A DNA stretch of 64,000 nucleotides from Clostridia bacterium (GTDB taxonomy: Bacteria > Bacillota > Clostridia > Christensenellales > CAG-917), in contig JAFZMH010000009.1 in the NCBI GenBank assembly GCA_017553325.1, positions 1-64,000 on the forward strand, read 5' to 3'. The position numbers were made by a program, and so were the translations under genes. Position 1 is the stretch's first letter, and each line of letters begins with the position of its first letter. The notes under the pieces were generated by a model. It saw only the letters and a program-made list of their open reading frames with translations. It had not been told where the DNA came from and did not search any database. This document shows, in pieces, positions 23,780 to 36,544 of this stretch.

Positions 23780-24030
23780 TGTCAAGCATGAATGGACGGC
23801 TTTGCCTTCATGAATGTTCCTATAGTCAATGAATGTTCGTTCACTTCGTTTTCTCAATGAATGTACTTGCTTTGCAAGTCATTAAAGTATGAATGTATTA
23901 TCCTCAATTAAGAATGCTTGCCCTCGAGCATTCATTGAACAAAAAGCGAAGCGGTTTGTGAAGATTCATTGAGCGACTTGTTACGAACATTCATTGAGTG
24001 ATGCAACGCATTGCGAAGATTCATTTTATT
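23780..24030. repeat. Array of short GAATG/CATTC repeats with hairpin spacers
   Basis: In the 316-bp gap between glgA and glgP, about six units containing GAATG (from 23789 to 23915) are followed by four inverted units ATTCATT(GA) (from 23930 to 24024). Several spacers are themselves hairpins, for example CTTGC-TTT-GCAAG and GCTTG/CGAGC. No gene is seen. This is not a CRISPR array: unit lengths and spacers are irregular. Confidence 0.6.
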
Positions 24031-24095
24031 TATGAAATAAATAAAAAAATATATATCTTTCGGTCCGGGGGAAAACGGAAGAAAGGAAAGGGTAT

Positions 24096-26522
24096 ATGAA
24101 ATATAACGTCACAACCAAAGAGTTTACAGCGCAAGTCACGTCTACGCTCGCGAGATATTTCGGTGTAAAGCCGGAAGACGCGACCAAAAATCAAATTTAC
24201 AGAGCGACTTGCATGTGCGTGAGAGACATTCTCACTCAAACTCGTGTCAGCTTCAAAAAGCGTTGCCACGAGCAGAACGTAAAACAAATCTACTATATGT
24301 CGATGGAGTTTCTCCTCGGCAGGTCTCTCAAAAACCACTTGCACAACATGGGCATAACAAAAGAGGTCACCAAAGCCGTCGAAAGTTTTGGCGTCTCTAT
24401 GGAAGAGATCTATGCCTTTGAACCCGACGCAGGTCTCGGCAACGGCGGTCTCGGCAGACTGGCAGCCGCCTATATGGACGCCTTGACCTCTCGCGGATAT
24501 GCGGCAAGCGGTTTTTCCATTTTGTACGACTACGGCATCTTCAAGCAGGTAATCGTCGACGGTTGGCAACTCGAACAGCCCGATTATTGGCTCAAGGGCG
24601 GCGACGTATGGCTCGCCCCGCGTCTCGAAGAGGTCTATCAAGTCAAATTCGGCGGAGTGGTCGACCAAACGTGGCAGGACGGCAAACTCACCGTCAACCA
24701 AAGAGATTGCACGATTGTCAACGCCGTGCCGTACGATATGAACATTTCGGGCTACGACACGCAGGCGGTCAACCGCATTCGCCTCTGGCACTCGGAAGCC
24801 CCGCAGGACTTCGATATGAGTATGTTCAGCCGTGGCGAATACGTCAAGGCTTCGGCGGCGAAGGCGATGGCGGAGTCCATCAACAAGGTCTTGTATCCCG
24901 CGGACGACCATATCGAGGGCAAGTCTCTCCGTCTCAAACAGCAATATTTCTTCGTGTCCGCGTCGATTCAAAGCATTTTGAGAAGACACTTGAAGACCAA
25001 CCCGTCGCTCGACAACCTTGCGGACTGCGTTGCGATTCACATCAACGACACGCACCCGACGCTCTGCATTCCGGAACTTATGCGTTTGCTCCTCGACGAG
25101 TACGGCTACGGTTGGGAGCAGGCGTGGGACATCACGACGCACGTCATCTCCTACACCAACCATACGGTCATGGCGGAAGCGCTTGAAAAGTGGCCGCAAG
25201 ACCTGTTTGCAAGACTTTTGCCGCGTATCTTCCAAATCGTGCACGAGATAAATCAACGCTTCTGCGATGAACTTTGGGGCTTCTATCCCAACAACTGGGA
25301 CACGGTCACCTACAATGCGATACTCTCGAACGGACAAGTCAAGATGGCAAACCTCTGCCTTGCGACTTCGCACACGATAAACGGCGTCTCCGCGCTTCAC
25401 AGCGACATATTGAAATACGACGTCTTCAAAGATTACTATCGTATGCACCCCGAAAAATTCACCAACGTGACCAACGGCATTACGCACCGTCGTTGGGTGG
25501 AGCAGGCAAACCCGCGCCTTGCCAAGTTTATAAACGAACTCATCGGCGACAGATGGCTCAAGGACGCGGACTATTTGCAGGAACTCCAAAAGTTTATGGG
25601 GGACAAGCAGGCCCTTTCGCGCCTTGAAAAGATAAAACGCGCCAACAAGGAAGACCTTGCAAAATTCATCCTTGAACAGAACAAGGTTCAAGTCGATCCG
25701 GACAGCATCTTCGACGTACAGGTCAAGAGGCTCCACGAATACAAACGTCAACTTCTCAACGCGCTCAACATTTTGGACCTCTATTTCCGCTTGAAGGAAA
25801 ACCCGAACCTCGACATCCAACCGCGCACGTTCATATTTGCGGCAAAAGCGGCGAGCGCCTATTATATGGCAAAGCAAATCATCCGCTTTATCTGCACTCT
25901 CGGCGACGTCATCAACAACGACCCCGACATCAACGGCAAGATAAAAGTAGTATTCCTTGAAAACTACCGCGTCACTCTCGCAGAAATGATTATGCCGGCT
26001 TCTGAGGTCAGCGAGCAAATTTCTCTCGCGGGCAAAGAGGCGAGCGGTACCGGCAACATGAAGTTTATGATAAACGGCGCGCTCACAATCGGCACTCTCG
26101 ACGGCGCAAACGTGGAAATCCACCAAAACGTCGGCGATGAAAATATGTTCTTGTTCGGCTTGCTCGCAGAACAGGTTGAGGAGATGTGGAGAAACGGCTA
26201 CAATCCGTCCCACTACTATCAAACCAACCCGCGCATAAAGAGGCTAATCGATTCTTTGCGTCAAGGACTCGGCGGAGTGTCTTTCAGCGAGATCGCAGAC
26301 TCCTTGACAATCGGTCGCGGCGGACAACCCGACGGCTATATGGTACTTGCCGATTTCGACAGTTATTCCGCCACGCAAGACAAGGTCGACGCCACCTACA
26401 AGAACCGCGAACAATGGAACCGTATGTCCCTCGTCAACATCTCGAAGGCAGGTTTCTTTGCGGCGGATCGCGCGGTGGAGGAGTATGCTCAACGCATTTG
26501 GGCGCTAAAACCCGTGCTGTAA
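24096..26522 (+). CDS. glgP: Glycogen/alpha-glucan phosphorylase, GT35
   Basis: 808 aa. It releases glucose-1-phosphate from the non-reducing ends of glycogen. The pyridoxal phosphate site EASGTGNMKFMINGALTIGT is intact, with Lys656 binding the cofactor. The N-terminal half has GNGGLGRLAAAYMDAL, a family hallmark. A GGAAAGGG ribosome site precedes the ATG. The final codons (KPVL-stop) form the left arm of element H, so coding sequence and repeat arm overlap here. Confidence 0.97.
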   Translation: MKYNVTTKEFTAQVTSTLARYFGVKPEDATKNQIYRATCMCVRDILTQTRVSFKKRCHEQNVKQIYYMSMEFLLGRSLKNHLHNMGITKEVTKAVESFGVSMEEIYAFEPDAGLGNGGLGRLAAAYMDALTSRGYAASGFSILYDYGIFKQVIVDGWQLEQPDYWLKGGDVWLAPRLEEVYQVKFGGVVDQTWQDGKLTVNQRDCTIVNAVPYDMNISGYDTQAVNRIRLWHSEAPQDFDMSMFSRGEYVKASAAKAMAESINKVLYPADDHIEGKSLRLKQQYFFVSASIQSILRRHLKTNPSLDNLADCVAIHINDTHPTLCIPELMRLLLDEYGYGWEQAWDITTHVISYTNHTVMAEALEKWPQDLFARLLPRIFQIVHEINQRFCDELWGFYPNNWDTVTYNAILSNGQVKMANLCLATSHTINGVSALHSDILKYDVFKDYYRMHPEKFTNVTNGITHRRWVEQANPRLAKFINELIGDRWLKDADYLQELQKFMGDKQALSRLEKIKRANKEDLAKFILEQNKVQVDPDSIFDVQVKRLHEYKRQLLNALNILDLYFRLKENPNLDIQPRTFIFAAKAASAYYMAKQIIRFICTLGDVINNDPDINGKIKVVFLENYRVTLAEMIMPASEVSEQISLAGKEASGTGNMKFMINGALTIGTLDGANVEIHQNVGDENMFLFGLLAEQVEEMWRNGYNPSHYYQTNPRIKRLIDSLRQGLGGVSFSEIADSLTIGRGGQPDGYMVLADFDSYSATQDKVDATYKNREQWNRMSLVNISKAGFFAADRAVEEYAQRIWALKPVL

Positions 26523-26653
26523 AGGCGCCATTGAGCGCCTGACTGCGTCAGCTTTGCGGGCGCTCGCCATCACGTACGGGTTAGTACGCTCAGACTCGCG
26601 TACGCACCTTCCTTGTCGTCCATCTCAATATCGCGCTTTACAGCACGGGTTTT
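26507..26653 (+). repeat. Palindromic intergenic element, copy H (arm inside glgP)
   Basis: Perfect 18-bp arms: 26507-26524 (AAAACCCGTGCTGTAAAG) and 26636-26653. The left arm includes the last four codons and stop of glgP. Inside are the hairpin CTGAC-TGC-GTCAG, the cap CGTAC-GGGTTA-GTACG and the tail ending in CATC. The right arm ends in TTTT and could terminate glgP transcription. Confidence 0.9.
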
Positions 26654-26677
26654 GAGATTTATATCAAAACATAATTT

Positions 26678-28591
26678 ATGTACAACCCGCTTATTCACAA
26701 ACGACCTTACGGCGCGACTGCCGTAAACAAAGAGACCACAATCACTTTCCCTCTCGATACCTCACTGGGGATCAAGAGGGTTTTTGTGGTGCTTCGAAAG
26801 GTCTTTGGCGTGGGATGTGAAAACTGTGATTGTCTACGTGAAGACAACTATTCCGTAGGCGAGGTCGGCGGGGCGTTTTCTTCGGGGGAGAGCCCGAGGG
26901 AGATAGTCCATGCAAACGGCAGTTTCCGCTTTGAACTCCCACTGCTTAGGAGCGAGGACGGGCAAGATATATTCTTTGGCGCGTTCTCCTTGCAAGAGTA
27001 CGGAGTGTACAACTATCGCTTTGAAGGAGAGTTTGCGGACGGTTCGCTTGCGTTTTTCGGCAGGGACTATGACGGAACCGCGATGAGGGGCGATTGGTTG
27101 CCGGAATGGCAGTTGACCGTGTCAAAATACGACTATAAAACCCCAAATTGGGCAAAACGCGGCGTGATTTATCAGATATTCGCCGACCGTTTTGCAAGAG
27201 AAGGAGAGGTCGAGTTTTCAAAGAAGGGCAGACTTCACGCCGACTGGTACGAGCGTCCAGACATTGCGGAAGACGGTAGACATTACCGTGCGGACGACTT
27301 TTTTGGGGGCAACGCAAAGGGCATAATCTCCAAACTCGATTATCTCAAAGACCTCGGCGTCACCCTCATATATTTGTCGCCGATTTTCAAGTCCGGTTCA
27401 AATCATCGCTACGACACGGGCGACTATATGAAAATCGACGAACTCTTCGGCACGGAAGAGGAACTCAAATCTCTCATCGCCGAGGCGGGCAAGCGCGGGA
27501 TGAAGATTATGCTTGACGGCGTGTTCAACCACACGGGCGCGGACAGCATATATTTCAACCGCGAAGGCAATTACGATTCGCTGGGGGCGTATCAATCGAA
27601 AGACTCGCCGTATTTTGATTGGTACGATTTTGAGGAATACCCGAACAAATATAGCTGCTGGTGGGGGAGCACCGTCGTTCCAACCGTCAACAAGTCCGCA
27701 AAGGGCTATCAAGATCTCGTGCTCGGCGAGGGCGGAGTCATTGACAAGTGGACAAAACTCGGAGTTGCGGGTTGGCGTCTCGACGTTGTGGACGAACTGC
27801 CCATAGATTTCACCACTGCGCTCTGCAAAAAGGTCAAGAGCGAGGGCGAAGACGTGCTCATCGTGGGCGAAGTGTGGGAAGATGCCACCACCAAGATTTC
27901 CTATGAAAAGTGGCGCCCGTACTTTATGGGCGGTCAACTTGATTCCGTGATGAACTATCCCTTCAAAGAGGCGATAATAAACTACGTGACGACGGGCGAC
28001 CGCCGTGCGTTTGTAAGTAGCGTCACGCGCATACTCGAAAACTACCCCAAAGAGAGCCTTGATTGCCTCATGAACCTTGTGGACAGTCACGATACCGTGC
28101 GCGCGATCACAAAGCTCAGCGGAGTGGAAGCACCTGCGGAAAAGATAGACAGGGCAAACTTCCGCCTGTCGGACGACAAATATGCGCTTGCAAAGAAGCG
28201 CCTTATGTTTGCATCCAAACTGCAATACCTTTTGCCGGGTGTGCCCTGCGTCTACTATGGAGACGAGGCAGGCGTTCAAGGCTTTGAAGATCCTTTGAAC
28301 CGCGGGACCTATCCGTGGGGCAGAGAAGATGAAGAACTTGTTGCGCATTACAAAAAACTCGCAAAAACTCGCAAAAAATACGAGGAGTTTATGACGGGCG
28401 AGACGGTTTTTGTGCCCGACGACCAACTCGTCGTGTTTGAACGTCGCGCAAGAGGGCAACGCATCACCGTCTACGCCAACGCCAACCCCTATCCCGTCAA
28501 ACGCAAAGTCGTGGGGTATAGCATGAGCAAGGGGCGCATCGTAAACGACGTTGAGGTTGCGCCGTATTCCGTTAAAGTTGTAAAGGAATAA
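26678..28591 (+). CDS. GH13 alpha-glucan hydrolase, neopullulanase/cyclomaltodextrinase-like
   Basis: 637 aa without a signal peptide, so cytoplasmic. The four GH13 regions are present: DGVFNHTG, GWRLDVVDE (nucleophile Asp369), VGEVWED (acid Glu398) and LVDSHDT (Asp472). An N-terminal beta-domain of about 150 residues and the DSVMNYPF segment resemble the neopullulanase/maltogenic amylase group. It probably trims maltodextrins or limit dextrins left by GlgP; a debranching role is possible because no glgX or pulA is in the window. No ribosome site is visible before the ATG, which is 25 bases after element H. Confidence 0.9.
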   Translation: MYNPLIHKRPYGATAVNKETTITFPLDTSLGIKRVFVVLRKVFGVGCENCDCLREDNYSVGEVGGAFSSGESPREIVHANGSFRFELPLLRSEDGQDIFFGAFSLQEYGVYNYRFEGEFADGSLAFFGRDYDGTAMRGDWLPEWQLTVSKYDYKTPNWAKRGVIYQIFADRFAREGEVEFSKKGRLHADWYERPDIAEDGRHYRADDFFGGNAKGIISKLDYLKDLGVTLIYLSPIFKSGSNHRYDTGDYMKIDELFGTEEELKSLIAEAGKRGMKIMLDGVFNHTGADSIYFNREGNYDSLGAYQSKDSPYFDWYDFEEYPNKYSCWWGSTVVPTVNKSAKGYQDLVLGEGGVIDKWTKLGVAGWRLDVVDELPIDFTTALCKKVKSEGEDVLIVGEVWEDATTKISYEKWRPYFMGGQLDSVMNYPFKEAIINYVTTGDRRAFVSSVTRILENYPKESLDCLMNLVDSHDTVRAITKLSGVEAPAEKIDRANFRLSDDKYALAKKRLMFASKLQYLLPGVPCVYYGDEAGVQGFEDPLNRGTYPWGREDEELVAHYKKLAKTRKKYEEFMTGETVFVPDDQLVVFERRARGQRITVYANANPYPVKRKVVGYSMSKGRIVNDVEVAPYSVKVVKE

Positions 28592-28596
28592 AAAAT

Positions 28597-28619
28597 GCCA
28601 CTCTATTGAGTGGCTTTTT
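28597..28619 (+). terminator. Terminator of the glycogen cluster
   Basis: GCCACTC-TATT-GAGTGGC followed by TTTTT, five bases after the GH13 gene. The preceding A run would also serve the convergent gene. Confidence 0.88.
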
Positions 28620-28626
28620 AATTGTT

Positions 28627-29349
28627 TTAATTGGTTAAACTTTTTTTATATATTTTCCCGTTCAATGTGGAAAGCATATTGTCGTTTATTGCAGTTAACG
28701 TCATTTTTTTATTGCCTACCGACGTCATTAAATACAATTTATCGTTTTCACAACGCACGGTTCCTTCGTTAATTAGATTGTCTTTCGCGTAAATTTTGAA
28801 GGAGTTCCCTTTTATAACTATGGTTGAGTCCTCATTTTTAAACGCACCTGCAAAACGGTGTGATTGTGCCTCGGGAAAAGGTGCGTCTCTATTCGTTCCG
28901 CAGCCCTTACAATAGTTTAAGTCTTTTGGATTTCGAGTGTTGCACACCAAACATATCCAGTCGTCGTTGCTTTTGCGTTCTTTCTCGCTGTTTTCAGGAG
29001 TCACGAATGTCTTTTTTTTAGAAGATAGCTTAGTGTTTGATTGAGATTCATTGTCATTTAAAGTTTTATCTTCACAGCTTTGGCCATCGTTGGAGAGGCA
29101 ATTCTTTTGGAAAGGAAAAATCAATAAAATTATTATATATCCCAAAATTCCAAACAAAGAACCGAGCCAAAAACCGATTTTTTCATTTATACCTCGTTGT
29201 TGTGCTATTAAGCGACCAAGCCTACCTAAAAAGTATGCTAAGACTATAATGAGGGCAAGCCCAATTATGCTGCCTAACACACAGGCGGCAATTATTCCTG
29301 CAACAACTTTTTCGGCTTCTGAAGTTGCGTTGAGTATAGAAACAAACAT
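28627..29349 (-). CDS. Membrane protein with RanBP2-type zinc finger, unknown function
   Basis: 240 aa. Two hydrophobic segments lie at about 15-45 and 58-80. A low-complexity polar stretch follows, then a zinc finger of RanBP2 type (WICLVC-x3-N-x6-C-x2-C, about 131-152), and a C-terminal beta-rich part (about 170-240) that reads like a small PH-like domain. Base composition is more AT-rich than the neighbours and codons are less biased, which may mark a later arrival. It has a strong ribosome site (GGAGGAG) and a near-consensus promoter whose spacer holds an operator, so it is probably repressed by the divergent XRE regulator. Confidence 0.8.
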   Translation of the reverse strand: MFVSILNATSEAEKVVAGIIAACVLGSIIGLALIIVLAYFLGRLGRLIAQQRGINEKIGFWLGSLFGILGYIIILLIFPFQKNCLSNDGQSCEDKTLNDNESQSNTKLSSKKKTFVTPENSEKERKSNDDWICLVCNTRNPKDLNYCKGCGTNRDAPFPEAQSHRFAGAFKNEDSTIVIKGNSFKIYAKDNLINEGTVRCENDKLYLMTSVGNKKMTLTAINDNMLSTLNGKIYKKSLTN

Positions 29350-29374
29350 TTTTCTCCTCCGTTTTTATGATCCA

Positions 29375-29403
29375 ATTATAATTCTCAATTTTTGAGATGT
29401 CAA
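29375..29403 (-). promoter_or_regulatory. Promoter of the zinc-finger membrane gene with embedded operator
   Basis: Minus strand TTGACA (29398-29403), 17-bp spacer, TATAAT (29375-29380). The perfect palindrome TCTCAA-TTT-TTGAGA (29383-29397) fills the spacer, where a bound repressor would block polymerase. Confidence 0.8.
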
Positions 29404-29411
29404 CATAATAT

Positions 29412-29430
29412 TCTCAATATTTGATACACT
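29412..29430 (+). promoter_or_regulatory. Second operator and leaderless XRE promoter
   Basis: TCTCAA-TAT-TTGATA (29412-29426) is a one-mismatch copy of the first operator, 29 bp away. It overlaps a -10 box TACACT (29425-29430) that lies six bases before the XRE start. No good -35 is seen. This suggests autoregulation. Confidence 0.6.
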
Positions 29431-29436
29431 AATAAT

Positions 29437-29637
29437 ATGGAAAACAATTTCAAAGAGAATTTGAAACAGTTGAGAAAAGAGGGCGGTTTGTCTCAGACGC
29501 AGTTGGCAAACGCACTCAATTTGACTGTAAAGACGATTTCTCATTGGGAGACCGGCTATACCGAACCGAGTATAAAACAAATACTCGAACTCGCGGAGTT
29601 TTTCCACGTTTCGCTTGAAGATTTGCTTTGCAAATAA
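29437..29637 (+). CDS. Small XRE-family transcriptional regulator
   Basis: 66 aa, essentially one Cro/CI helix-turn-helix (LSQTQLANALNLTVKTISHW) plus the final helix. It is the likely repressor of itself and of the divergent membrane protein, through the two TCTCAA palindromes between them. No ribosome site is present and the -10 box is six bases from the ATG, so the mRNA may be leaderless. Confidence 0.88.
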   Translation: MENNFKENLKQLRKEGGLSQTQLANALNLTVKTISHWETGYTEPSIKQILELAEFFHVSLEDLLCK

Positions 29638-29640
29638 AAA

Positions 29641-29662
29641 ACGGCACTCAGCAGAGTGCCGT
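29641..29662. terminator. Bidirectional terminator between XRE gene and mrp
   Basis: ACGGCACTC-AGCA-GAGTGCCGT with an A run on the left and T-rich sequence on the right, between two convergent genes. Confidence 0.85.
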
Positions 29663-29679
29663 TTAAATTTATTAAATTT

Positions 29680-30492
29680 TTATTTTTCAATTTCTCGCAA
29701 TGCTTCTTGCAAATACTCTTGAGCATTGAGTGTTTCAACTTCGCCGGCGTCGACCGCCTTTGCGATATTTGCGTCCATAGGCATACGCCCGAGGACTTTG
29801 AGGTTGAAGTCTTTTGCCACGTCATTGAGTTTGCTTGCGCCAAAGAGGTTTATCTCTTTGCCGCAGTCCGGGCATTTGATATAGCTCATATTTTCCACGA
29901 CGCCCAAGATCTTGATGTTCATCTTGTTTGCCATCTTGACCGCCTTTTCGACAATCATAGAGACGAGTTCCTGCGGAGAGGTGACGATGATTATGCCGTC
30001 CAACTTGATGGACTGGAAGACGGTGAGAGGCACGTCGCCCGTTCCCGGAGGCATGTCCACAAACATATAGTCCACGTGGTCCCAAACGACGTCCGTCCAG
30101 AACTGTTTGACCATGCCGGCAATGACAGGTCCACGCCAAATGACGGGATCCGTCTCGTCTTCGAGAAGAAGATTGGAGGACACGATTTTGACGCCCATAC
30201 GTGAGATTGCCGGATATAGTCCGTTTTGATCTCCTTCAAGTCCGCCGTTTACGCCGAACGCCTTTGGAATGGACGGACCGGTCACGTCTGCGTCCAAAAT
30301 TGCAACGTCGTTGCCCTTTCTTGCCATACCGACGGCAAGGAGCGAGGTGACCAAAGATTTGCCGACGCCGCCCTTTCCGCTGACGACGCCAATTACCTTT
30401 TTGACAAAGGAAAACTCGTTTTGTTTTTCAAAAGTGATACGGCTCGGGCAATCTTGTCCGCAGGAGCCGCAATCGTGTGTGCAATCGCTCAT
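29680..30492 (-). CDS. mrp: Mrp/NBP35-family iron-sulfur carrier ATPase
   Basis: 270 aa. It is a deviant Walker ATPase (GKGGVGKS, about 39-46) that assembles or carries iron-sulfur clusters. The N-terminus has a Cys set (CTHDCGSCGQDC) as in NBP35-type proteins, and the C-terminal CPDC (in IKCPDCGKE) bridges the dimer-bound cluster. VDMPPGTGD is the conserved switch. It is monocistronic; the rubrerythrin gene diverges from it. Confidence 0.93.
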   Translation of the reverse strand: MSDCTHDCGSCGQDCPSRITFEKQNEFSFVKKVIGVVSGKGGVGKSLVTSLLAVGMARKGNDVAILDADVTGPSIPKAFGVNGGLEGDQNGLYPAISRMGVKIVSSNLLLEDETDPVIWRGPVIAGMVKQFWTDVVWDHVDYMFVDMPPGTGDVPLTVFQSIKLDGIIIVTSPQELVSMIVEKAVKMANKMNIKILGVVENMSYIKCPDCGKEINLFGASKLNDVAKDFNLKVLGRMPMDANIAKAVDAGEVETLNAQEYLQEALREIEK

Positions 30493-30612
30493 AATTGCTC
30501 CTTGTTGTTTTGCTGAGTATATGATAGCACAAAAAACGATTTTTCAAAAGGTTTTCAAGTATATTTTTTCATCCGTTTTGCAATAATCATAAAAACGAAA
30601 AGGAGAACGAAT

Positions 30613-31200
30613 ATGAAACTTTTGGAAAGCAAAACACTTCAAAACCTTGCCCGTTCATTCGCCGGCGAAACGCAGGCGTCCACGCGCTACAAGTTTATCG
30701 AGTACGGCGCGAGAAACGAGGGCTACAACGCACTCGCGGAGGTTATCGACAAGATAGCCTTCAACGAGTTCAATCACGGGCGTATGTTTTACACCTACAT
30801 TCAGCAGGCGAGCCCGAAGATGATAGAAAACATCGACATCTCGGCGGGCTATCCCTTCAAAGAAAAGTGGAATCTCGTCGAAAACTTGAAACTCGCCGCC
30901 GACGACGAGGAGCACGACCGCAATCTCTACAAAGAGTTCGAGAAGGTCGCTCGCGAAGAAGGGTTTGAAGAGATTGCGAATCTCTTTGCAATGACCGCAA
31001 GCGTCGAGGAGTGCCACAAGAAACTCTTCCTCGATTTGTATCAACAATTCTCATCCGGCACCGCCTACAAAAAGGACAAGACCGTCAAGTGGAAGTGCTC
31101 CGGTTGCGGCTATGAAGCAGAGTCCAAAGAGGCTTGGGACAAGTGCCCATTATGCCAAGCGGAACAGGGGTTCGTAATGCTACAAGTCGCAAGCAAGTAA
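30613..31200 (+). CDS. rbr: Rubrerythrin
   Basis: 195 aa. It reduces hydrogen peroxide in anaerobes. The N-terminal ferritin-like di-iron domain (about 1-145) carries its ligands in GETQAS, NEFNH, DDEEHD and SVEECHK. The C-terminal rubredoxin-like domain has CSGCGYE and CPLCQAE for one iron. AAAAGGAG precedes the ATG. It diverges from mrp and is followed directly by element I, whose left arm overlaps the stop. Confidence 0.96.
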   Translation: MKLLESKTLQNLARSFAGETQASTRYKFIEYGARNEGYNALAEVIDKIAFNEFNHGRMFYTYIQQASPKMIENIDISAGYPFKEKWNLVENLKLAADDEEHDRNLYKEFEKVAREEGFEEIANLFAMTASVEECHKKLFLDLYQQFSSGTAYKKDKTVKWKCSGCGYEAESKEAWDKCPLCQAEQGFVMLQVASK

Positions 31201-31324
31201 AACCGCACTATTTGGCGAATAGCTGCGTCAATGCACTTTGTTCTCTCAACCGTGTACGGTTTTGTACACTGGGTTGGTCGCTCAAAGCACATTTCCTTGC
31301 TCTTCATCCAAATATTGCGGTTTT
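31199..31324 (+). repeat. Palindromic intergenic element, copy I
   Basis: Arms AAAACCGCACTATTTGG and CCAAATATTGCGGTTTT with one mismatch. The inner stem GCACTTTG/CAAAGCAC region and CAACC/GGTTG lead to the cap GTGTAC-GGTTTT-GTACAC. The tail ends in CATC. The right arm ends in TTTT. Confidence 0.88.
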
Positions 31325-31382
31325 GAACAAAATCGGATTATAATTGCAAAAACAATACTTTATCATGCAAAAATGCATAAAT

Positions 31383-31405
31383 AAAAGGCGCGTTCTGCGC
31401 CTTTT
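31383..31405. terminator. Bidirectional terminator
   Basis: AAAAGGCGC-GTTCT-GCGCCTTTT between element I and the convergent activase gene. Confidence 0.85.
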
Positions 31406-31424
31406 TGTATAAATCGCAATTTTT

Positions 31425-32123
31425 TTAGAAGTTATAGCCTCTTATTCCGACTTGCCCGACTTTATCGTTGAAGAGCGGAACGAAAGCTTCGGTTTCGGCT
31501 TTGGTGAAATCGGTGAAGCCGTGGGAGATGCAACCCTCTGTGTCGTTGTAATGCTGCATGAAATAGCGTTTCGCACCCTTTATCCACTCGGCGATTTCCT
31601 TCATATCGTCTTCCGTGTGGAACTCCTTTATGAGAGTTGTGCGGAACTCGTAGTCGACGCCCGAGGTTTTCAAGATATTTATGCTCTCGTCGATTTTGTC
31701 AAGGTCGACGTCTTTTACGCCGGTTGTTAAGGCGTATTTCGATTTGCTGTTTTTGACGTCCATCGCCACGTAGTCGAGAAGGCCTCTTTCAAGCAGGTCT
31801 TTGAGCACGTCGGGGCGGAGCCCGTTCGTGTCGAGTTTGGTGGCATAGCCGAGTGCGCGCACCTTCTCATAGAACTCGGCGAGCCCCTGTTGCAAGGTCG
31901 CTTCGCCACCCGTCACGCACACCGCGTCCACCAAGCCTTTGCGCTTGACGAGATAGTCGAACACCTCGTCCACCGAAATCTCTTGGCTCTTTACGTCGCC
32001 CACGACAAGTGCGCCATTGTGGCAAAACGGACAGCGGAAATTGCACCCGCCCGTGAATACCGTGCAGGCGATTTTGCCGTCGTAGTCGACCATTGAAAAC
32101 TTTTCAAAACCGCATATAATCAT
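31425..32123 (-). CDS. Anaerobic ribonucleotide reductase activating protein, radical SAM
   Basis: 232 aa. The radical-SAM cluster motif CNFRCPFC is at about residues 27-34, and VTGGEATLQ is the SAM-binding GGE segment. The layout fits the NrdG2 family (glycyl radical activase for NrdD) rather than classical NrdG; a pyruvate formate-lyase activase role cannot be excluded because neither partner gene is here. No ribosome site precedes the ATG, and a promoter ends nine bases before it. Confidence 0.88.
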   Translation of the reverse strand: MIICGFEKFSMVDYDGKIACTVFTGGCNFRCPFCHNGALVVGDVKSQEISVDEVFDYLVKRKGLVDAVCVTGGEATLQQGLAEFYEKVRALGYATKLDTNGLRPDVLKDLLERGLLDYVAMDVKNSKSKYALTTGVKDVDLDKIDESINILKTSGVDYEFRTTLIKEFHTEDDMKEIAEWIKGAKRYFMQHYNDTEGCISHGFTDFTKAETEAFVPLFNDKVGQVGIRGYNF

Positions 32124-32132
32124 AGTGAATAT

Positions 32133-32161
32133 ATTTTAACACATTACGCCCACTCGTGCAA
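32133..32161 (-). promoter_or_regulatory. Activase promoter (near-leaderless)
   Basis: Minus strand TTGCAC (32156-32161), 17-bp spacer, TAAAAT (32133-32138), nine bases before the ATG. Confidence 0.65.
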
Positions 32162-32168
32162 ACGTTTC

Positions 32169-32197
32169 TTTACATTAGTTTTTGTTTGTGATATAAT
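32169..32197 (+). promoter_or_regulatory. Chromate-type transporter promoter (near-leaderless)
   Basis: TTTACA (32169-32174), 17-bp spacer, TATAAT (32192-32197), ten bases before the ATG. It is back to back with the activase promoter, with only seven bases between the two -35 boxes. Confidence 0.75.
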
Positions 32198-32207
32198 ACG
32201 TTTTGCC

Positions 32208-32939
32208 ATGGAAAAGAGAACTGCAAAGCAATATTTTAAAGAACTTTTTCAGATGTTCCTCGTCTTTTTGAAGATAGGGTTCTTTTCCTTTGGCGGCGGC
32301 TATGCCATGCTCGCGCTCATAGAGGGCGAGGTCGTAGACAAAAAGCATTGGCTCACGCACTCGGAAATGAGCGAGATTTTTGCAATCGCGGAGAGTACGC
32401 CGGGGCCGATTGCCATAAACACCGCAACTTTTATCGGGGCAAAGCGCCTCGGAGTGTTTGGCGGAATATTCGCGACGCTGGGCGTCGTCATCCCGTCCTT
32501 TGCAATCATTGTCGCGCTGTCCTATATTTTGGAACTCGTCAAGGACAACAAGTGGGTTGGTTTCCTCTTCCGCGGTATCCGTGTCGGAGTGCTCGTGCTA
32601 ATTGCGAGGGCGGTGCTTTCATTTTTCAAGAATATGCGCAAGACGGTCTTTTCGTTTGCGCTTTGCGCGATTGCGTTCTTACTCGTATTTTTGGTCAAGG
32701 TTGACGTCATTTACGTCATACTCGGCACGATAGTCCTTTGCTCGATAATCGTGGCGTGGGAGAGTTATTACAGAAATCATCGCTTGCACATGCTTGGCAC
32801 GGCGGAGTATTACAGTGAAAGGCTCGGCAAACCGCTTGAGGTTGATGAATACGTCGGCGAAAAGTCCGTTCAAAAGGGCATTGTAAAGATACGGAAAGGC
32901 AAGGATGCCGAAACGGCGTCCGAGGAGGGCGGCGTATGA
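32208..32939 (+). CDS. Chromate transporter family protein, first half
   Basis: 243 aa. It is a short-chain CHR protein, one half of a two-gene transporter. The family signatures FFSFGGGYAMLALIE (about 25-39) and AESTPGPIAINTATFIG (about 61-77) are present, with about five to six membrane segments and a charged C-terminal tail of about 55 residues. Natural substrates of clostridial members are uncertain despite the name. The stop overlaps the next start by four bases (ATGA). The start has no ribosome site. Confidence 0.9.
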   Translation: MEKRTAKQYFKELFQMFLVFLKIGFFSFGGGYAMLALIEGEVVDKKHWLTHSEMSEIFAIAESTPGPIAINTATFIGAKRLGVFGGIFATLGVVIPSFAIIVALSYILELVKDNKWVGFLFRGIRVGVLVLIARAVLSFFKNMRKTVFSFALCAIAFLLVFLVKVDVIYVILGTIVLCSIIVAWESYYRNHRLHMLGTAEYYSERLGKPLEVDEYVGEKSVQKGIVKIRKGKDAETASEEGGV

Positions 32940-33556
32940 TTTATCTCGACCTCTTCTGGACGTTCTTCCAAATCGGCTTGTTCACGATAGGCGGCGGGCA
33001 GGCTATGATTCCGATGATTATGACCAACGTCGTAAACAAGGGTTGGATGGAATACGAGGCGCTCGTGGACTTTATCGCAATCAGCGAGAGCACCCCGGGT
33101 CCGTTTGCCGTGAATATTGCAACCTATTCCGGTCTCGTGGCGGCGCAGGGCGCGGGCGGTATCGGCGTTTTGGGCGCCATGTGTTCTACGCTCGGTGTGG
33201 TGTTACCATCTGTAATAATAATTTTGCTTATAGCAAAAATCTTTACGACGTTCATGAAAAATCGCGCGGTAAAAGAGGTGTTCTTGGGCGTCGGCGCAAC
33301 CGTCACGGGATTGCTTGCATCGGTATGGTTCAGCCTTTTTCTCACTCTCATATTCGGTTTGAGCATAGCAAATTATAGTCTTGTCGGCACTTTCAATCCG
33401 GACTGGATAAGCCTTGGACTGTTTGCCGTCGTAATGCCCGTCTCCTTCATCAAAATCAAGGGCAAAAAATTCCCGCCGATTTTGCTTGTCGTTATTTGCG
33501 CGCTCCTTGGACTATTGGTTTTCGGACTGTTTGATTATTTCGGGGTCGCCGTGTGA
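32936..33556 (+). CDS. Chromate transporter family protein, second half
   Basis: 206 aa. It is the partner of the preceding gene, with the parallel signatures GLFTIGGGQAMIPMI (about 14-28) and SESTPGPFAVNIATYSG (about 46-62) and about five membrane segments. Short-chain CHR proteins normally need both members. Translation is probably coupled through the ATGA overlap. A strong bidirectional terminator follows. Confidence 0.9.
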   Translation: MIYLDLFWTFFQIGLFTIGGGQAMIPMIMTNVVNKGWMEYEALVDFIAISESTPGPFAVNIATYSGLVAAQGAGGIGVLGAMCSTLGVVLPSVIIILLIAKIFTTFMKNRAVKEVFLGVGATVTGLLASVWFSLFLTLIFGLSIANYSLVGTFNPDWISLGLFAVVMPVSFIKIKGKKFPPILLVVICALLGLLVFGLFDYFGVAV

Positions 33557-33597
33557 GAGAACTATAAGAGTTTTGATATATGACAAAAAGGCAATAA

Positions 33598-33622
33598 AAA
33601 ACCGCACCAAAGGTGCGGTTTT
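33598..33622. terminator. Bidirectional terminator
   Basis: AAAACCGCACC-AAA-GGTGCGGTTTT between convergent transporter genes. Confidence 0.9.
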
Positions 33623-33642
33623 ATTTTTTGTTATTGCACGGT

Positions 33643-35754
33643 TTAGTCCGCGGAATCCATGGAGTCGAGACGAATTTGTCTCTTTTCTTCCTTGGTCAAC
33701 TTTCTGCCTTTTGCAAGTATCACGCTGTCGCCGTGTTTGACGAACGCCATGAGTACGATTGCTATGACGATGCAGATTGCGCTGTACAGGAAGAGGTATT
33801 TTTGTTGAATGTAGTCCATGACGAGACCCGCGATGAACGGGGTGATTGCCTGTGCGGACATCGTCGCCACGTAGTAGTAGCCTGTGTACGCGCCAACCGT
33901 TTCCGCCGTGGAAAGCTCGGTGACCATCGGGAACGTGTTGACGTTTGCGATGATAAGACCGAAGCCGGAGATGACGTAGAAGAGTGCGAACAGCACGGAC
34001 TTCAAACTGTTTTCTTGACCTTGTACGATTGCGAAGCAGATGAGCACGAAGGACACGACTGCGAGGGCGTAGCCAATCATAATTGATTTCTTTCTGCCAA
34101 TCTTTGCAGCAAGATAGCCGACGGGGATGAACGCTATTGCGCTGACGCCCATTGATACGCCGGAGATGATAGACGCGATACCTGCGGACAGGTTGAGGCC
34201 TTTGGTCGTGTAGACGGAGAGGTTGGACGATACTGCGTTATAGCCCATAAACCACATAAAGATTGACGCGAGGATGAGCCAGAAGGAAACGAGCTTGCCA
34301 CGTTCTTCCTTCGTCTTTGCTTCCCACCATTCCTTTGGCGTCGGGCGACGCTTATTGACGTTGGCCACTACTCCCTTTGCAAACTTTACGTGCTCGGGGA
34401 GTTCATCCACCATAGGGGCGGCTTCGCCGTTCGGATATCCGGTTTCGTCAAAGTCTGCATGCTCTATATCGGCTTGCCCGGCGCCGTCAGAAGAAACATC
34501 GGGCATAATGCCTCCTTCCTCGATGAGTTCTTCCGCAAATTTTTCGGCGTGTTCGCTTTCGCCTTCGGCGAAGTCGTCAATGCCGTATTCCTTGCATATC
34601 TCTTGACATTTTGCAACCATCTTGCGTTCTCTGACGAGTGCGAGGAAGCCTGCGAGGAGCAAGAGCATGCCGCCGCCGACGGAAGCGAAGATGATGATAT
34701 AGTTGGACAGTCTTTCACCAAACAGGACGATGGTGTAAATCAAGAACGCGATTGCGCCGCCGATACCACCGCAGAGGTTGATGATTGCGTTGCCCTGCGA
34801 GCGGAGCGGTTTCGGCGTTACGTCGGGCATAAGCGCGACTGCTGGGCTTCTGAACGTCGTCATCGCGATAAGCACGAGGAGCAAGATGACCATATAGATA
34901 ACTATGCTCGTGATACCAGTCTTGGTGTTCGTGCATTCGTTGTATTTCCAGTTGGATTTGTAGTTGGCGACGCCGTTTGCCGCAAACGATTTGTAGTTGG
35001 CGTTTGTGTCGATCATCTCTTGATAGGTGACGTTTGTGTCCGGACAAATCGCATCCAAGTCTTCAACGACCTCGTCGCCGTAATAGTAGGTCGTTGCGCC
35101 GAGCAGATTGAGCACGGCTTTTTTGGACTTCATCTTTTGATACTCCGGCGTGAGCGCTCTTGAAAGACCGGTGAAGAAGGCTTTTTCCGCAGGAGTGCCA
35201 ATATTTGCCGCTCCGCCGTATTTGTCGGCGTTTTGTCTCAGATAGTCAATATCGCAGAAGTTCGCAGCAGATTCACCGTTATACTTTTCTTTATTGACTG
35301 CCGCTTCGTACCATTTGCCAAACTCTTCTTCATAGTTGACTGCCGCTTCGTGCGTCGTCCAAGCCTCGTCCGCCATTTTTTGTTGCTTGAAAGTCGCGAC
35401 CGGGACGAAGACCATAAGGAGCACGGACGCTATCGTACCGACCACAATGAACGGGGTGCGTCTGCCGAACTTCTTGGCAATCTTGCCGTGGGACTTGTCA
35501 GAGAGTTTGCCGAAAATCGGCAACATAAACAGCGAGAGCAGGTTGTCAAGACCCATGATGAGACCTCTCGCCCAGCTCGGCAAGCCGTATGCGTTTTCCA
35601 AAAGGAGCGGGACGACAAAGTCGTACGCCGTCCAAAACAGCATAATGATTGCAAATGCAAAACCGACCTTGAACGTCTGACCGTAGTCGAGTTTTAGCGG
35701 CGGTCTGCCGTTTTCGTCAAGGACAACTTCTTTTTCTTTTGATTTTTTTGCCAT
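33643..35754 (-). CDS. MFS transporter, GPH/SLC45-like, with extracellular insert
   Basis: 703 aa, far above the 450-500 aa of relatives. Twelve membrane segments can be traced. The motif between helices 2 and 3 (GKLSDKSHGKIAKKFGRRTP) marks the cytoplasmic side. About 150 extra residues (about 122-270) lie between helices 3 and 4, which places them outside the cell, and a roughly 110-residue acidic loop separates the two halves inside. The GPH/SLC45 group imports disaccharides or other glycosides, which would suit the nearby glycogen and phosphoglucomutase genes, but the substrate is inferred. GGGAGA precedes the ATG. Confidence 0.85.
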   Translation of the reverse strand: MAKKSKEKEVVLDENGRPPLKLDYGQTFKVGFAFAIIMLFWTAYDFVVPLLLENAYGLPSWARGLIMGLDNLLSLFMLPIFGKLSDKSHGKIAKKFGRRTPFIVVGTIASVLLMVFVPVATFKQQKMADEAWTTHEAAVNYEEEFGKWYEAAVNKEKYNGESAANFCDIDYLRQNADKYGGAANIGTPAEKAFFTGLSRALTPEYQKMKSKKAVLNLLGATTYYYGDEVVEDLDAICPDTNVTYQEMIDTNANYKSFAANGVANYKSNWKYNECTNTKTGITSIVIYMVILLLVLIAMTTFRSPAVALMPDVTPKPLRSQGNAIINLCGGIGGAIAFLIYTIVLFGERLSNYIIIFASVGGGMLLLLAGFLALVRERKMVAKCQEICKEYGIDDFAEGESEHAEKFAEELIEEGGIMPDVSSDGAGQADIEHADFDETGYPNGEAAPMVDELPEHVKFAKGVVANVNKRRPTPKEWWEAKTKEERGKLVSFWLILASIFMWFMGYNAVSSNLSVYTTKGLNLSAGIASIISGVSMGVSAIAFIPVGYLAAKIGRKKSIMIGYALAVVSFVLICFAIVQGQENSLKSVLFALFYVISGFGLIIANVNTFPMVTELSTAETVGAYTGYYYVATMSAQAITPFIAGLVMDYIQQKYLFLYSAICIVIAIVLMAFVKHGDSVILAKGRKLTKEEKRQIRLDSMDSAD

Positions 35755-35873
35755 AACGTTCTCCCTTTGCCCGAATAGGGCATCAAGTTTAGGAAACCCC
35801 TAACATACGAATATTATAAAATATCAAAATGATAAAGTAAATACCCAAATTAAAAAAACGGGCAAATAATAAA

Positions 35874-35901
35874 AAAAAGACGCTCATTTGAGCGTCTTTT
35901 T
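35874..35901 (-). terminator. Terminator of the WHP-repeat membrane gene
   Basis: AAAAAGACGCTC-ATTT-GAGCGTCTTTTT, 13 bases past the stop. Confidence 0.88.
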
Positions 35902-35914
35902 GAGTTTGAAGATT

Positions 35915-36544
35915 TTATCTTTGATCGTCGGGGGTATCGTCCTCCACGTGAGACGGAGCGGGCTCTTCTTGCTCGGGGTAGTCGTTTTTGTGGATGCCCT
36001 TGTATTTCATCATCGTGCCCCTCCAAGTGTAGTAGAGAGGAATTGCAAAGAAGACGACCCAGCCCGGGTGCCATGCGTGCAGTGGCGTGAGCCCCAAGAC
36101 GAGGTATACCGCAACCGTGATGATAGGGACCAAGATGTCGAAAATCTTCGTCCAGTTCGCGCCTTTGATGACCGCCACCATCATATAGTAGAGCGGAATT
36201 GCCGCAAATATCGCCCAGTAGGGGTGCCACATACCGCCTATACAGCCAAGGCACAGATACACGGCAACTACGATAGGCGCAATCGGCACGAGTTCAAGCG
36301 ACTTGTGGATTATCGCCTGCGCCATCATATAGTAGATAGGCAGAATGAAAAATACGAGCCATGCGGGGTGCCACCAGCCGCCGAGACTGCCGAGCAATAT
36401 GTACGCTACGACCGTGAGAAGAGGAAGCCCGTCGTTGAGCATCATAAGCGGAAGCGGAGCCGCGTGCGCCGCCTGCTTTTGTTCGTTTCCGAATTGTTGA
36501 ACTTTTTCTTTGCCCTTTTTCAATTTGTCGAAGAAATCACTCAT
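35915..36544 (-). CDS. Membrane protein with three tandem WHP repeats, unknown function
   Basis: 209 aa. A short amphipathic, lysine-rich N-terminus is followed by three repeats of about 45 residues. Each is a helix ending LG, then WHP, an aromatic stretch FF/FAxIPLYY and a second helix: LGSLGGWWHPAW, LGCIGGMWHPYW and LGLTPLHAWHPGW. The C-terminus is acidic and proline-rich. I do not recognise a named family. The ATG with GGAGG upstream was chosen over a TTG five codons earlier. The MFS gene lies downstream with a terminator between. Confidence 0.85.
   Translation of the reverse strand: MSDFFDKLKKGKEKVQQFGNEQKQAAHAAPLPLMMLNDGLPLLTVVAYILLGSLGGWWHPAWLVFFILPIYYMMAQAIIHKSLELVPIAPIVVAVYLCLGCIGGMWHPYWAIFAAIPLYYMMVAVIKGANWTKIFDILVPIITVAVYLVLGLTPLHAWHPGWVVFFAIPLYYTWRGTMMKYKGIHKNDYPEQEEPAPSHVEDDTPDDQR

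What the first reader, a model, noticed from the sequence alone, without database searches (positions are those of the whole stretch)
29375..29430. Twin operators set inside two divergent promoters
The perfect dyad TCTCAA-TTT-TTGAGA fills the 17-bp spacer of a consensus promoter for the zinc-finger membrane gene, and a near copy 29 bp away overlaps the -10 of the 66-aa XRE gene. The geometry predicts a simple two-gene switch with a minimal regulator. The target is a membrane protein with a RanBP2-type zinc finger, an uncommon domain in bacteria.
Basis: partly seen in the sequence, partly recalled or inferred. Interest (0 to 1): 0.55.

Follow-up and report, generated by a model that had tools for sequence, protein, structure and literature searches.

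The report
Mini-repressor with twin promoter operators
A tiny DNA-binding protein and a neighbouring membrane-protein gene appear to be controlled by two copies of one palindrome built into their back-to-back promoters, and related bacteria carry the same layout with a different palindrome for each version of the protein, which gives a natural set of independent genetic switches to test.

Summary
O1 (29383-29397, perfect dyad) fills the 17-bp spacer of a 12/12 consensus promoter for the 240-aa membrane gene. O2 (29412-29426, one mismatch) overlaps a likely extended -10 (TGA-TACACT) that ends 6 nt before the ATG of the 66-aa XRE gene; no Shine-Dalgarno, so probably leaderless. A protein-only search returned 20 loci; 13 carry the same pair, including O2's constant mismatch TTGATA, which the -10 explains. 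The layout is general: 53 of 104 small-XRE loci have significant twin dyads (controls 2 of 103 and 2 of 49). O1 sits in a near-consensus divergent promoter in 39 of 57, and half-site sequence follows the recognition helix (partial r 0.54, 0 of 2000 permutations). Most likely the XRE binds both dyads, represses the membrane gene tightly and itself more weakly, and serves this locus only. In same-genus relative G005 the site is empty. The RanBP2 zinc-finger label is below the Pfam cut-off. The cargo's function and any inducing signal are unknown. A known kind of circuit, in a mosaic family that my paper searches did not show as described.

The parts
28627..29349 (-). target gene: 240-aa protein, two predicted TM helices, one C4 zinc-ribbon-like motif, then a beta-rich C-terminal part (low-confidence model)
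   Evidence: no relative in the 99 other genomes searched nor in viral contigs
29375..29380 (-). -10 of the target promoter (TATAAT on the minus strand)
29383..29397 (.). operator O1, perfect dyad TCTCAA-N3-TTGAGA in the 17-bp spacer
   Evidence: invariant in 15 aligned loci
29398..29403 (-). -35 of the target promoter (TTGACA on the minus strand)
29412..29426 (.). operator O2, TCTCAA-N3-TTGATA
   Evidence: invariant, mismatch included, in 15 aligned loci
29422..29430 (+). likely extended -10 of the XRE gene, TG-A-TACACT, sharing 29422-29426 with O2
29437..29637 (+). 66-aa XRE (HTH_3) regulator; ATG 6 nt after the -10, no Shine-Dalgarno: predicted leaderless
29639..29664 (+). terminator-like hairpin after the XRE gene
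28594..29631 (.). about 1.04-kb two-gene segment absent from the same site in relative G005
   Evidence: (GC 0.37 against 0.51-0.52 in the two neighbour genes)

Best explanation
The 66-aa XRE protein is a sensor-less, Cro-sized dimeric repressor dedicated to this locus. A dimer on O1, inside the spacer of the strong divergent promoter, blocks RNA polymerase and keeps the membrane gene off. A dimer on O2, whose right half doubles as the extended -10 of the regulator's own promoter, limits its own synthesis. Because -10 identity forces TTGAGA to TTGATA, O2 is probably the weaker site, so the regulator shuts the target before itself. Shown: the sequences, their conservation, and the helix/half-site covariation. 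Inferred: dimer, binding, affinities, repression, leaderless start. Unknown: what relieves repression (loss of the protein by dilution or proteolysis, an anti-repressor, or the membrane product itself).
For: Same pair in 13 of the 20 loci found by XRE protein sequence alone; the XREs of those 13 are 47-75% identical to the window's. Dyad positions invariant in 15 aligned loci while mean column identity is 53%. Of 104 small-XRE loci 53 have twin dyads at <=2 of 200 shuffles; without the window and L076 and L078, which were chosen by the operator, 50 of 101. Controls: 2 of 103 downstream regions and 2 of 49 upstream regions of other ORFs. O1 in a divergent promoter of >=10/12: 39 of 57 against 59 of 1140 with shuffled flanks; without the TCTCAA group 24 of 41 against 29 of 820. 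O1 more symmetric than O2 in 48, less in 3, equal in 6 of 57; without the TCTCAA group 32, 3 and 6 of 41. Helix against operator: partial r 0.54 given core identity, 0 of 2000 permutations, 47 dereplicated cassettes. Model pLDDT 95, fold of CylR2, ImmR and C.AhdI.
Against: No binding or expression data. Three loci with the same helix residues lack the pair (L057, L064 and the fragment L074). The permutation test does not remove all phylogenetic signal. 51 of 104 small-XRE loci show no twin at that threshold. Some divergent cargos are not membrane proteins, and 10 of 57 had no divergent ORF by my rule. The -10 of the XRE gene is clear in the TCTCAA group (TGNTANNNT in 15 of 16) but not elsewhere: 7 of 39 against 2.2 expected. 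By a looser rule 43 of 55 cassettes have a -10-like hexamer near O2, with the ATG 5-8 nt on in 17, 4 nt or less in 5 (implausible), 9-14 in 4 and over 14 in 17.
Confidence: 0.8

Rival explanations
1. The XRE represses the target from O1 but at low level activates its own promoter from O1 or O2, giving a true two-state switch as in lambda cI or pLS20 Rco.
For: By eye the XRE promoter has no good -35 (alignment), which leaves room for activation; O1 and O2 are 29 bp apart in 15 of the 16 TCTCAA loci, 30 in the other; the pLS20 regulator both activates and represses its own promoter (abstract of PMC4207663).
Against: An extended -10 needs no -35 (recalled); O2 covers the -10, the place for repression; a Cro-sized protein has little room for activation or tetramers.
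Confidence: 0.12
2. The pair is a toxin/antitoxin-like or immunity module: the membrane protein is harmful when expressed and the XRE is purely its transcriptional safety.
For: Operator set in a strong promoter; sporadic, cassette-like distribution; small hydrophobic cargos at some loci (L063, L071).
Against: Cargos are diverse, including zinc ribbons, TM2-domain proteins and lipoprotein-like proteins; no PADLOC match for the membrane protein.
Confidence: 0.15
3. A different regulator binds the dyads and the XRE is only a neighbour.
For: No direct binding data; ten places in this genome match the XRE at E<=0.001, its own gene included.
Against: The pair follows this XRE across loci with unrelated cargo, and the half-site changes with the helix of the adjacent XRE.
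Confidence: 0.04

Closest known systems
CylR2 of Enterococcus faecalis (PDB 1utx)
   Same: 66-residue XRE chain of the same fold (Foldseek TM 0.83); regulator genes divergent from the controlled operon, with a membrane protein in the system (review passages, PMC5454873)
   Different: The membrane protein CylR1 is a co-regulator encoded beside CylR2 and the target is a toxin operon; here the membrane gene is the divergent target. Operator layout was not compared (structure paper not held).
Controller (C) proteins of restriction-modification systems (C.AhdI, C.Esp1396I)
   Same: Small dimers with paired dyads of unequal affinity at their own promoter (passages of PMC4041747); fold match 1y7y
   Different: C.Esp1396I OL and OR lie adjacent within 35 bp of one promoter and OL also activates; here one dyad sits in each of two divergent promoters 29 bp apart and no R-M genes were seen beside the pair
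ImmR of ICEBs1 and the RstR family
   Same: RstR is the best-scoring NCBIfam model; the ImmR domain is among the sequence and fold matches
   Different: Below the RstR curated cut-off (55.6 against 80 bits); I saw no integrated-element genes in the ORF list of 24000-36000
Rco of plasmid pLS20
   Same: Regulator controlling its own and a strong divergent promoter (abstract of PMC4207663)
   Different: Tetramer, two operators joined by DNA looping, overlapping promoters, own-promoter activation (same abstract)
LacI-family recognition code from local regulation
   Same: Same logic of reading specificity from operators of local regulators (abstract of PMC2978694)
   Different: Other protein family; the standard twin divergent layout is not part of that abstract

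Membership tests
XRE / HTH_3 (PF01381) | score above Pfam cut-off over the whole domain | tested here: met
   65.6 bits against 23, residues 9-63 of 66, profile 1-55 of 55
XRE / HTH_3 (PF01381) | five-helix Cro/CI fold | tested here: met
   (pLDDT 95.1, five helices)
RstR family repressor (NF041951) | curated NCBIfam cut-off | tested here: not met
   55.6 against 80 bits
Restriction-modification controller protein | R-M genes alongside | tested here: not met
   immediate neighbours are an amylase, an Mrp/NUBPL-type ATPase and the membrane gene
RanBP2-type zinc finger (PF00641) | Pfam gathering score | tested here: not met
   18.1 against 27 bits, E 0.0016
Bacterial zinc ribbon Zn_Ribbon_1 (PF13240) | Pfam gathering score for the window protein | tested here: not met
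   not among the window protein's matches up to E 1; met by the cargos of L065, L067, L069, L137
Small-XRE divergent twin-operator cassette (group defined here) | small XRE, twin dyads 28-31 bp apart, O1 in the divergent promoter spacer | tested here: met
Small-XRE divergent twin-operator cassette (group defined here) | XRE binds both dyads and represses | not testable with these tools
   needs gel shift and reporters

The most novel reading that the evidence does not exclude
This order of bacteria carries a large mosaic family of two-gene cassettes. Each has a sensor-less Cro-sized repressor with its own private operator pair in a standard divergent double promoter, and the same envelope-protein cargos are re-paired with different repressors. 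Together they form a natural library of mutually insulated switches and a broad recognition code for the minimal XRE fold, in which the membrane cargo itself may feed back on the repressor.
Probability: 0.35. Interest if true: 0.7.

Novelty: new variant of a known kind. Interest (0 to 1): 0.5.

Why it matters
About eleven helix/half-site pairings (my grouping) in one promoter architecture make the recognition code of the smallest XRE proteins directly testable, without needing to know the inducing signal. The parts are short (66 aa, about 70 bp) and their sites differ, so they are candidate orthogonal repressors. For biology, they suggest that these bacteria, some with small genomes, spend many small regulators each on one neighbouring, mostly envelope-protein gene, for a purpose not yet known.

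Tried and rejected
Regulon search: no other exact site; at <=2 mismatches 74 sites against 81 reversed control, so no sign of a wider regulon. Phage or plasmid origin: the TCTCAA twin pattern gave 0 hits in viral contigs; all plasmid and phage XRE matches are under 60% identical; not pursued. Membrane protein relatives: none in viral contigs or in the 99 other genomes searched. Its model is poor (pLDDT 53.7) and was not searched. Beyond the order: the pattern matched 1 of 293 genomes drawn at class level, the window's own; 15 others of the 293 are of the same order, so 0 of 277 outside it. The first twin scan read minus-strand loci in the wrong orientation; replace it. Defence-system reading: the XRE has only HTH-type matches and the membrane protein none in PADLOC. 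CACTC-N-GAGTG hairpins flank the pair, but the genome has 38 of them against 4 for the control, so I do not claim site-specific insertion.

Rows dropped: L075 (20th locus) was not scanned for generic twins. The scan of 119 loci holds 104 with 55-75 aa, 14 longer and the fragment L074. The 59 extra loci were my choice from the matches listed (open frame up to 92 aa; that list is itself cut and I did not take every one that qualified); the 60th, L140, repeats L019 and was not used. Not dereplicated in the 104: L078 and L071 have identical XREs, and others are close. The set of 57 uses score >=20 and <=4 of 200 shuffles; searches use the 55 of these with spacing 27-33. For the empty site I compared 4 of the 20 loci.

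Full report
What is there. O1 fills the spacer of a perfect consensus promoter pointing at the 240-aa membrane gene. O2, 29 bp away, has one departure from symmetry (TTGATA for TTGAGA). I read the XRE promoter as an extended -10, TG-A-TACACT, whose hexamer begins with the last two bases of O2. The ATG follows 6 nt later with no Shine-Dalgarno by my rule, which predicts a leaderless mRNA. Among the 16 loci with this operator, the 11 whose -10 ends 18 or more nt before the ATG have a Shine-Dalgarno-like match (11 of 11), and the 5 at 6-10 nt lack one (W, L056, L059, L060, L062). This split supports the placing of the -10, though the match rule is loose and long leaders have more room for a chance match.

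Is it more than chance. The exact dyad occurs at one place in the genome, and the two 1-mismatch sites outside this locus lie in ORFs. A search of one genome per species with the XRE protein alone returned 20 loci. Of these, 13 have a perfect TCTCAA-N3-TTGAGA followed 29 bp (30 in L058) on by TCTCAA-N3-TTGATA. A search with the pair as a pattern matched 5 of 396 genomes of the order: the window's own, three that repeat loci already held (L077 as L056, L080 as L059, L078 as L071), and one new locus, L076. In 15 aligned intergenic regions (W, the 13 and L076) both dyads, O2's constant mismatch included, are invariant, while mean column identity is 53%. The other seven of the 20: L057, L064 and the fragment L074 share the helix residues but lack the pair; L070 and L072 have other helices and variant dyads; L073 shows none; L075 is a weak match.

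A general layout. I scanned upstream of 119 XRE loci for any pair of similar dyads 24-36 bp apart. Of 104 loci with a 55-75-aa XRE, 53 beat all but at most 2 of 200 shuffles; without the window and the two loci found by the operator pattern (L076, L078) this is 50 of 101. The same scan gave 2 of 103 downstream of the XRE genes and 2 of 49 upstream of long ORFs in the window. In the 57 strongest, spacing is 28-31 bp in 52. The upstream dyad lies in the spacer of a divergent promoter of at least 10/12 in 39 of 57 (shuffled flanks 59 of 1140; plus strand 0 of 57; second dyad, minus strand, 6 of 57), and it is the more symmetric one in 48 (3 the reverse, 6 equal).

Who binds. The half-site differs by the recognition helix of the adjacent XRE: KT[IV]SH with TCTCAA, SKG[IV]ISL with TCTTAC, SNASISY with TTCTAAT, GKS.[IV]SQ with TTCCCGTT, SQQCVS with TACAAG, [DN]QRT[IV]SA with ACCAAA, and others. 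Over 47 dereplicated cassettes helix identity (seven residues) predicts operator similarity after allowing for identity of the rest of the protein (partial r 0.54, 0 of 2000 permutations). In the four bins of core identity from 0.3 to 0.9, operator similarity averages 0.84-0.87 for pairs with alike helices (7 to 33 pairs a bin) and 0.51-0.55 for unlike; the bin below 0.3 had a single alike pair at 0.40 against 0.48 for unlike. Common descent is not fully removed, but the simplest reading is that each XRE reads the dyads beside it.

What it controls. 47 of 57 cassettes have a divergent ORF of 40 aa or more with a Shine-Dalgarno-like match by my rule; 34 of the 47 have at least one hydrophobic segment by a crude hydropathy count. 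Cargo families recur with different helices (BLAST, E <= 1e-4, low-complexity filter off): zinc ribbon plus TM (L060, L065, L067, L068, L069; L128; L137), a three-TM family (L020 group and L010), a TM2-domain family (L016, L024, L133, of which only L133 was tested against Pfam), and a Cys-rich family (L066, L097, L127). So regulator/operator units and cargos look re-paired over time. 20 of 47 cargos, the window's own membrane protein among them, matched no other. A second cassette in the window's genome (L048) uses another dyad (TGGTAGA/TCTTCCA; 3 of 200 shuffles reach its score) and a soluble-looking divergent ORF, in keeping with private operators.

History. In the same-genus relative G005 the amylase and Mrp-type genes that flank the pair are adjacent: window 28593 and 29632 map 5 bases apart in L142, so about 1.04 kb is extra here. 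Its GC is 0.37 against 0.51-0.52 in the flanking genes. Of the four relatives' loci compared, L159 also has an Mrp-type gene by the amylase and no cassette, while L143 and L147 show neither the Mrp-type gene nor the cassette. The nearest XRE (75%, L056) carries the same 44-base operator stretch as G105, of another family of the order. Recent gain is likely; loss in G005 is not excluded.

Mechanism and limits. See Best explanation. Structure adds that the XRE is modelled as a five-helix Cro/CI-type domain. I have no binding, expression or induction data. Paper searches, in an open-licence library only, showed me no description of this cassette family. Of papers I saw search listings with the starts of abstracts, two full abstracts and passages. 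Statements on extended -10 promoters, lambda Cro and CI are recalled.

Noticed in passing
28597-28614 and 29639-29664: The cassette is flanked by two similar terminator-like hairpins (CACTC-N4-GAGTG). This pattern (N3-6) occurs 38 times in the genome against 4 for the reversed control, and G005 has one copy at the empty site.
   Followed up: partly
L048 1486-2073: Second small-XRE twin-operator cassette in the same genome with a different dyad and a soluble-looking divergent ORF that may be leaderless.
   Followed up: partly
L074 2341-2626: XRE fragment soon after what looks by eye like a tRNA or tmRNA 3' end, perhaps a remnant at an integration site.
   Followed up: no
L072 about 2410-2500: TCTTAC-type cassette that by eye has a third dyad as well as the twin pair.
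   Followed up: no
genomes of family f1: Up to 26 matches to this XRE in one 1.4-Mb genome (G006), a high number of XRE domains for so small a genome.
   Followed up: partly
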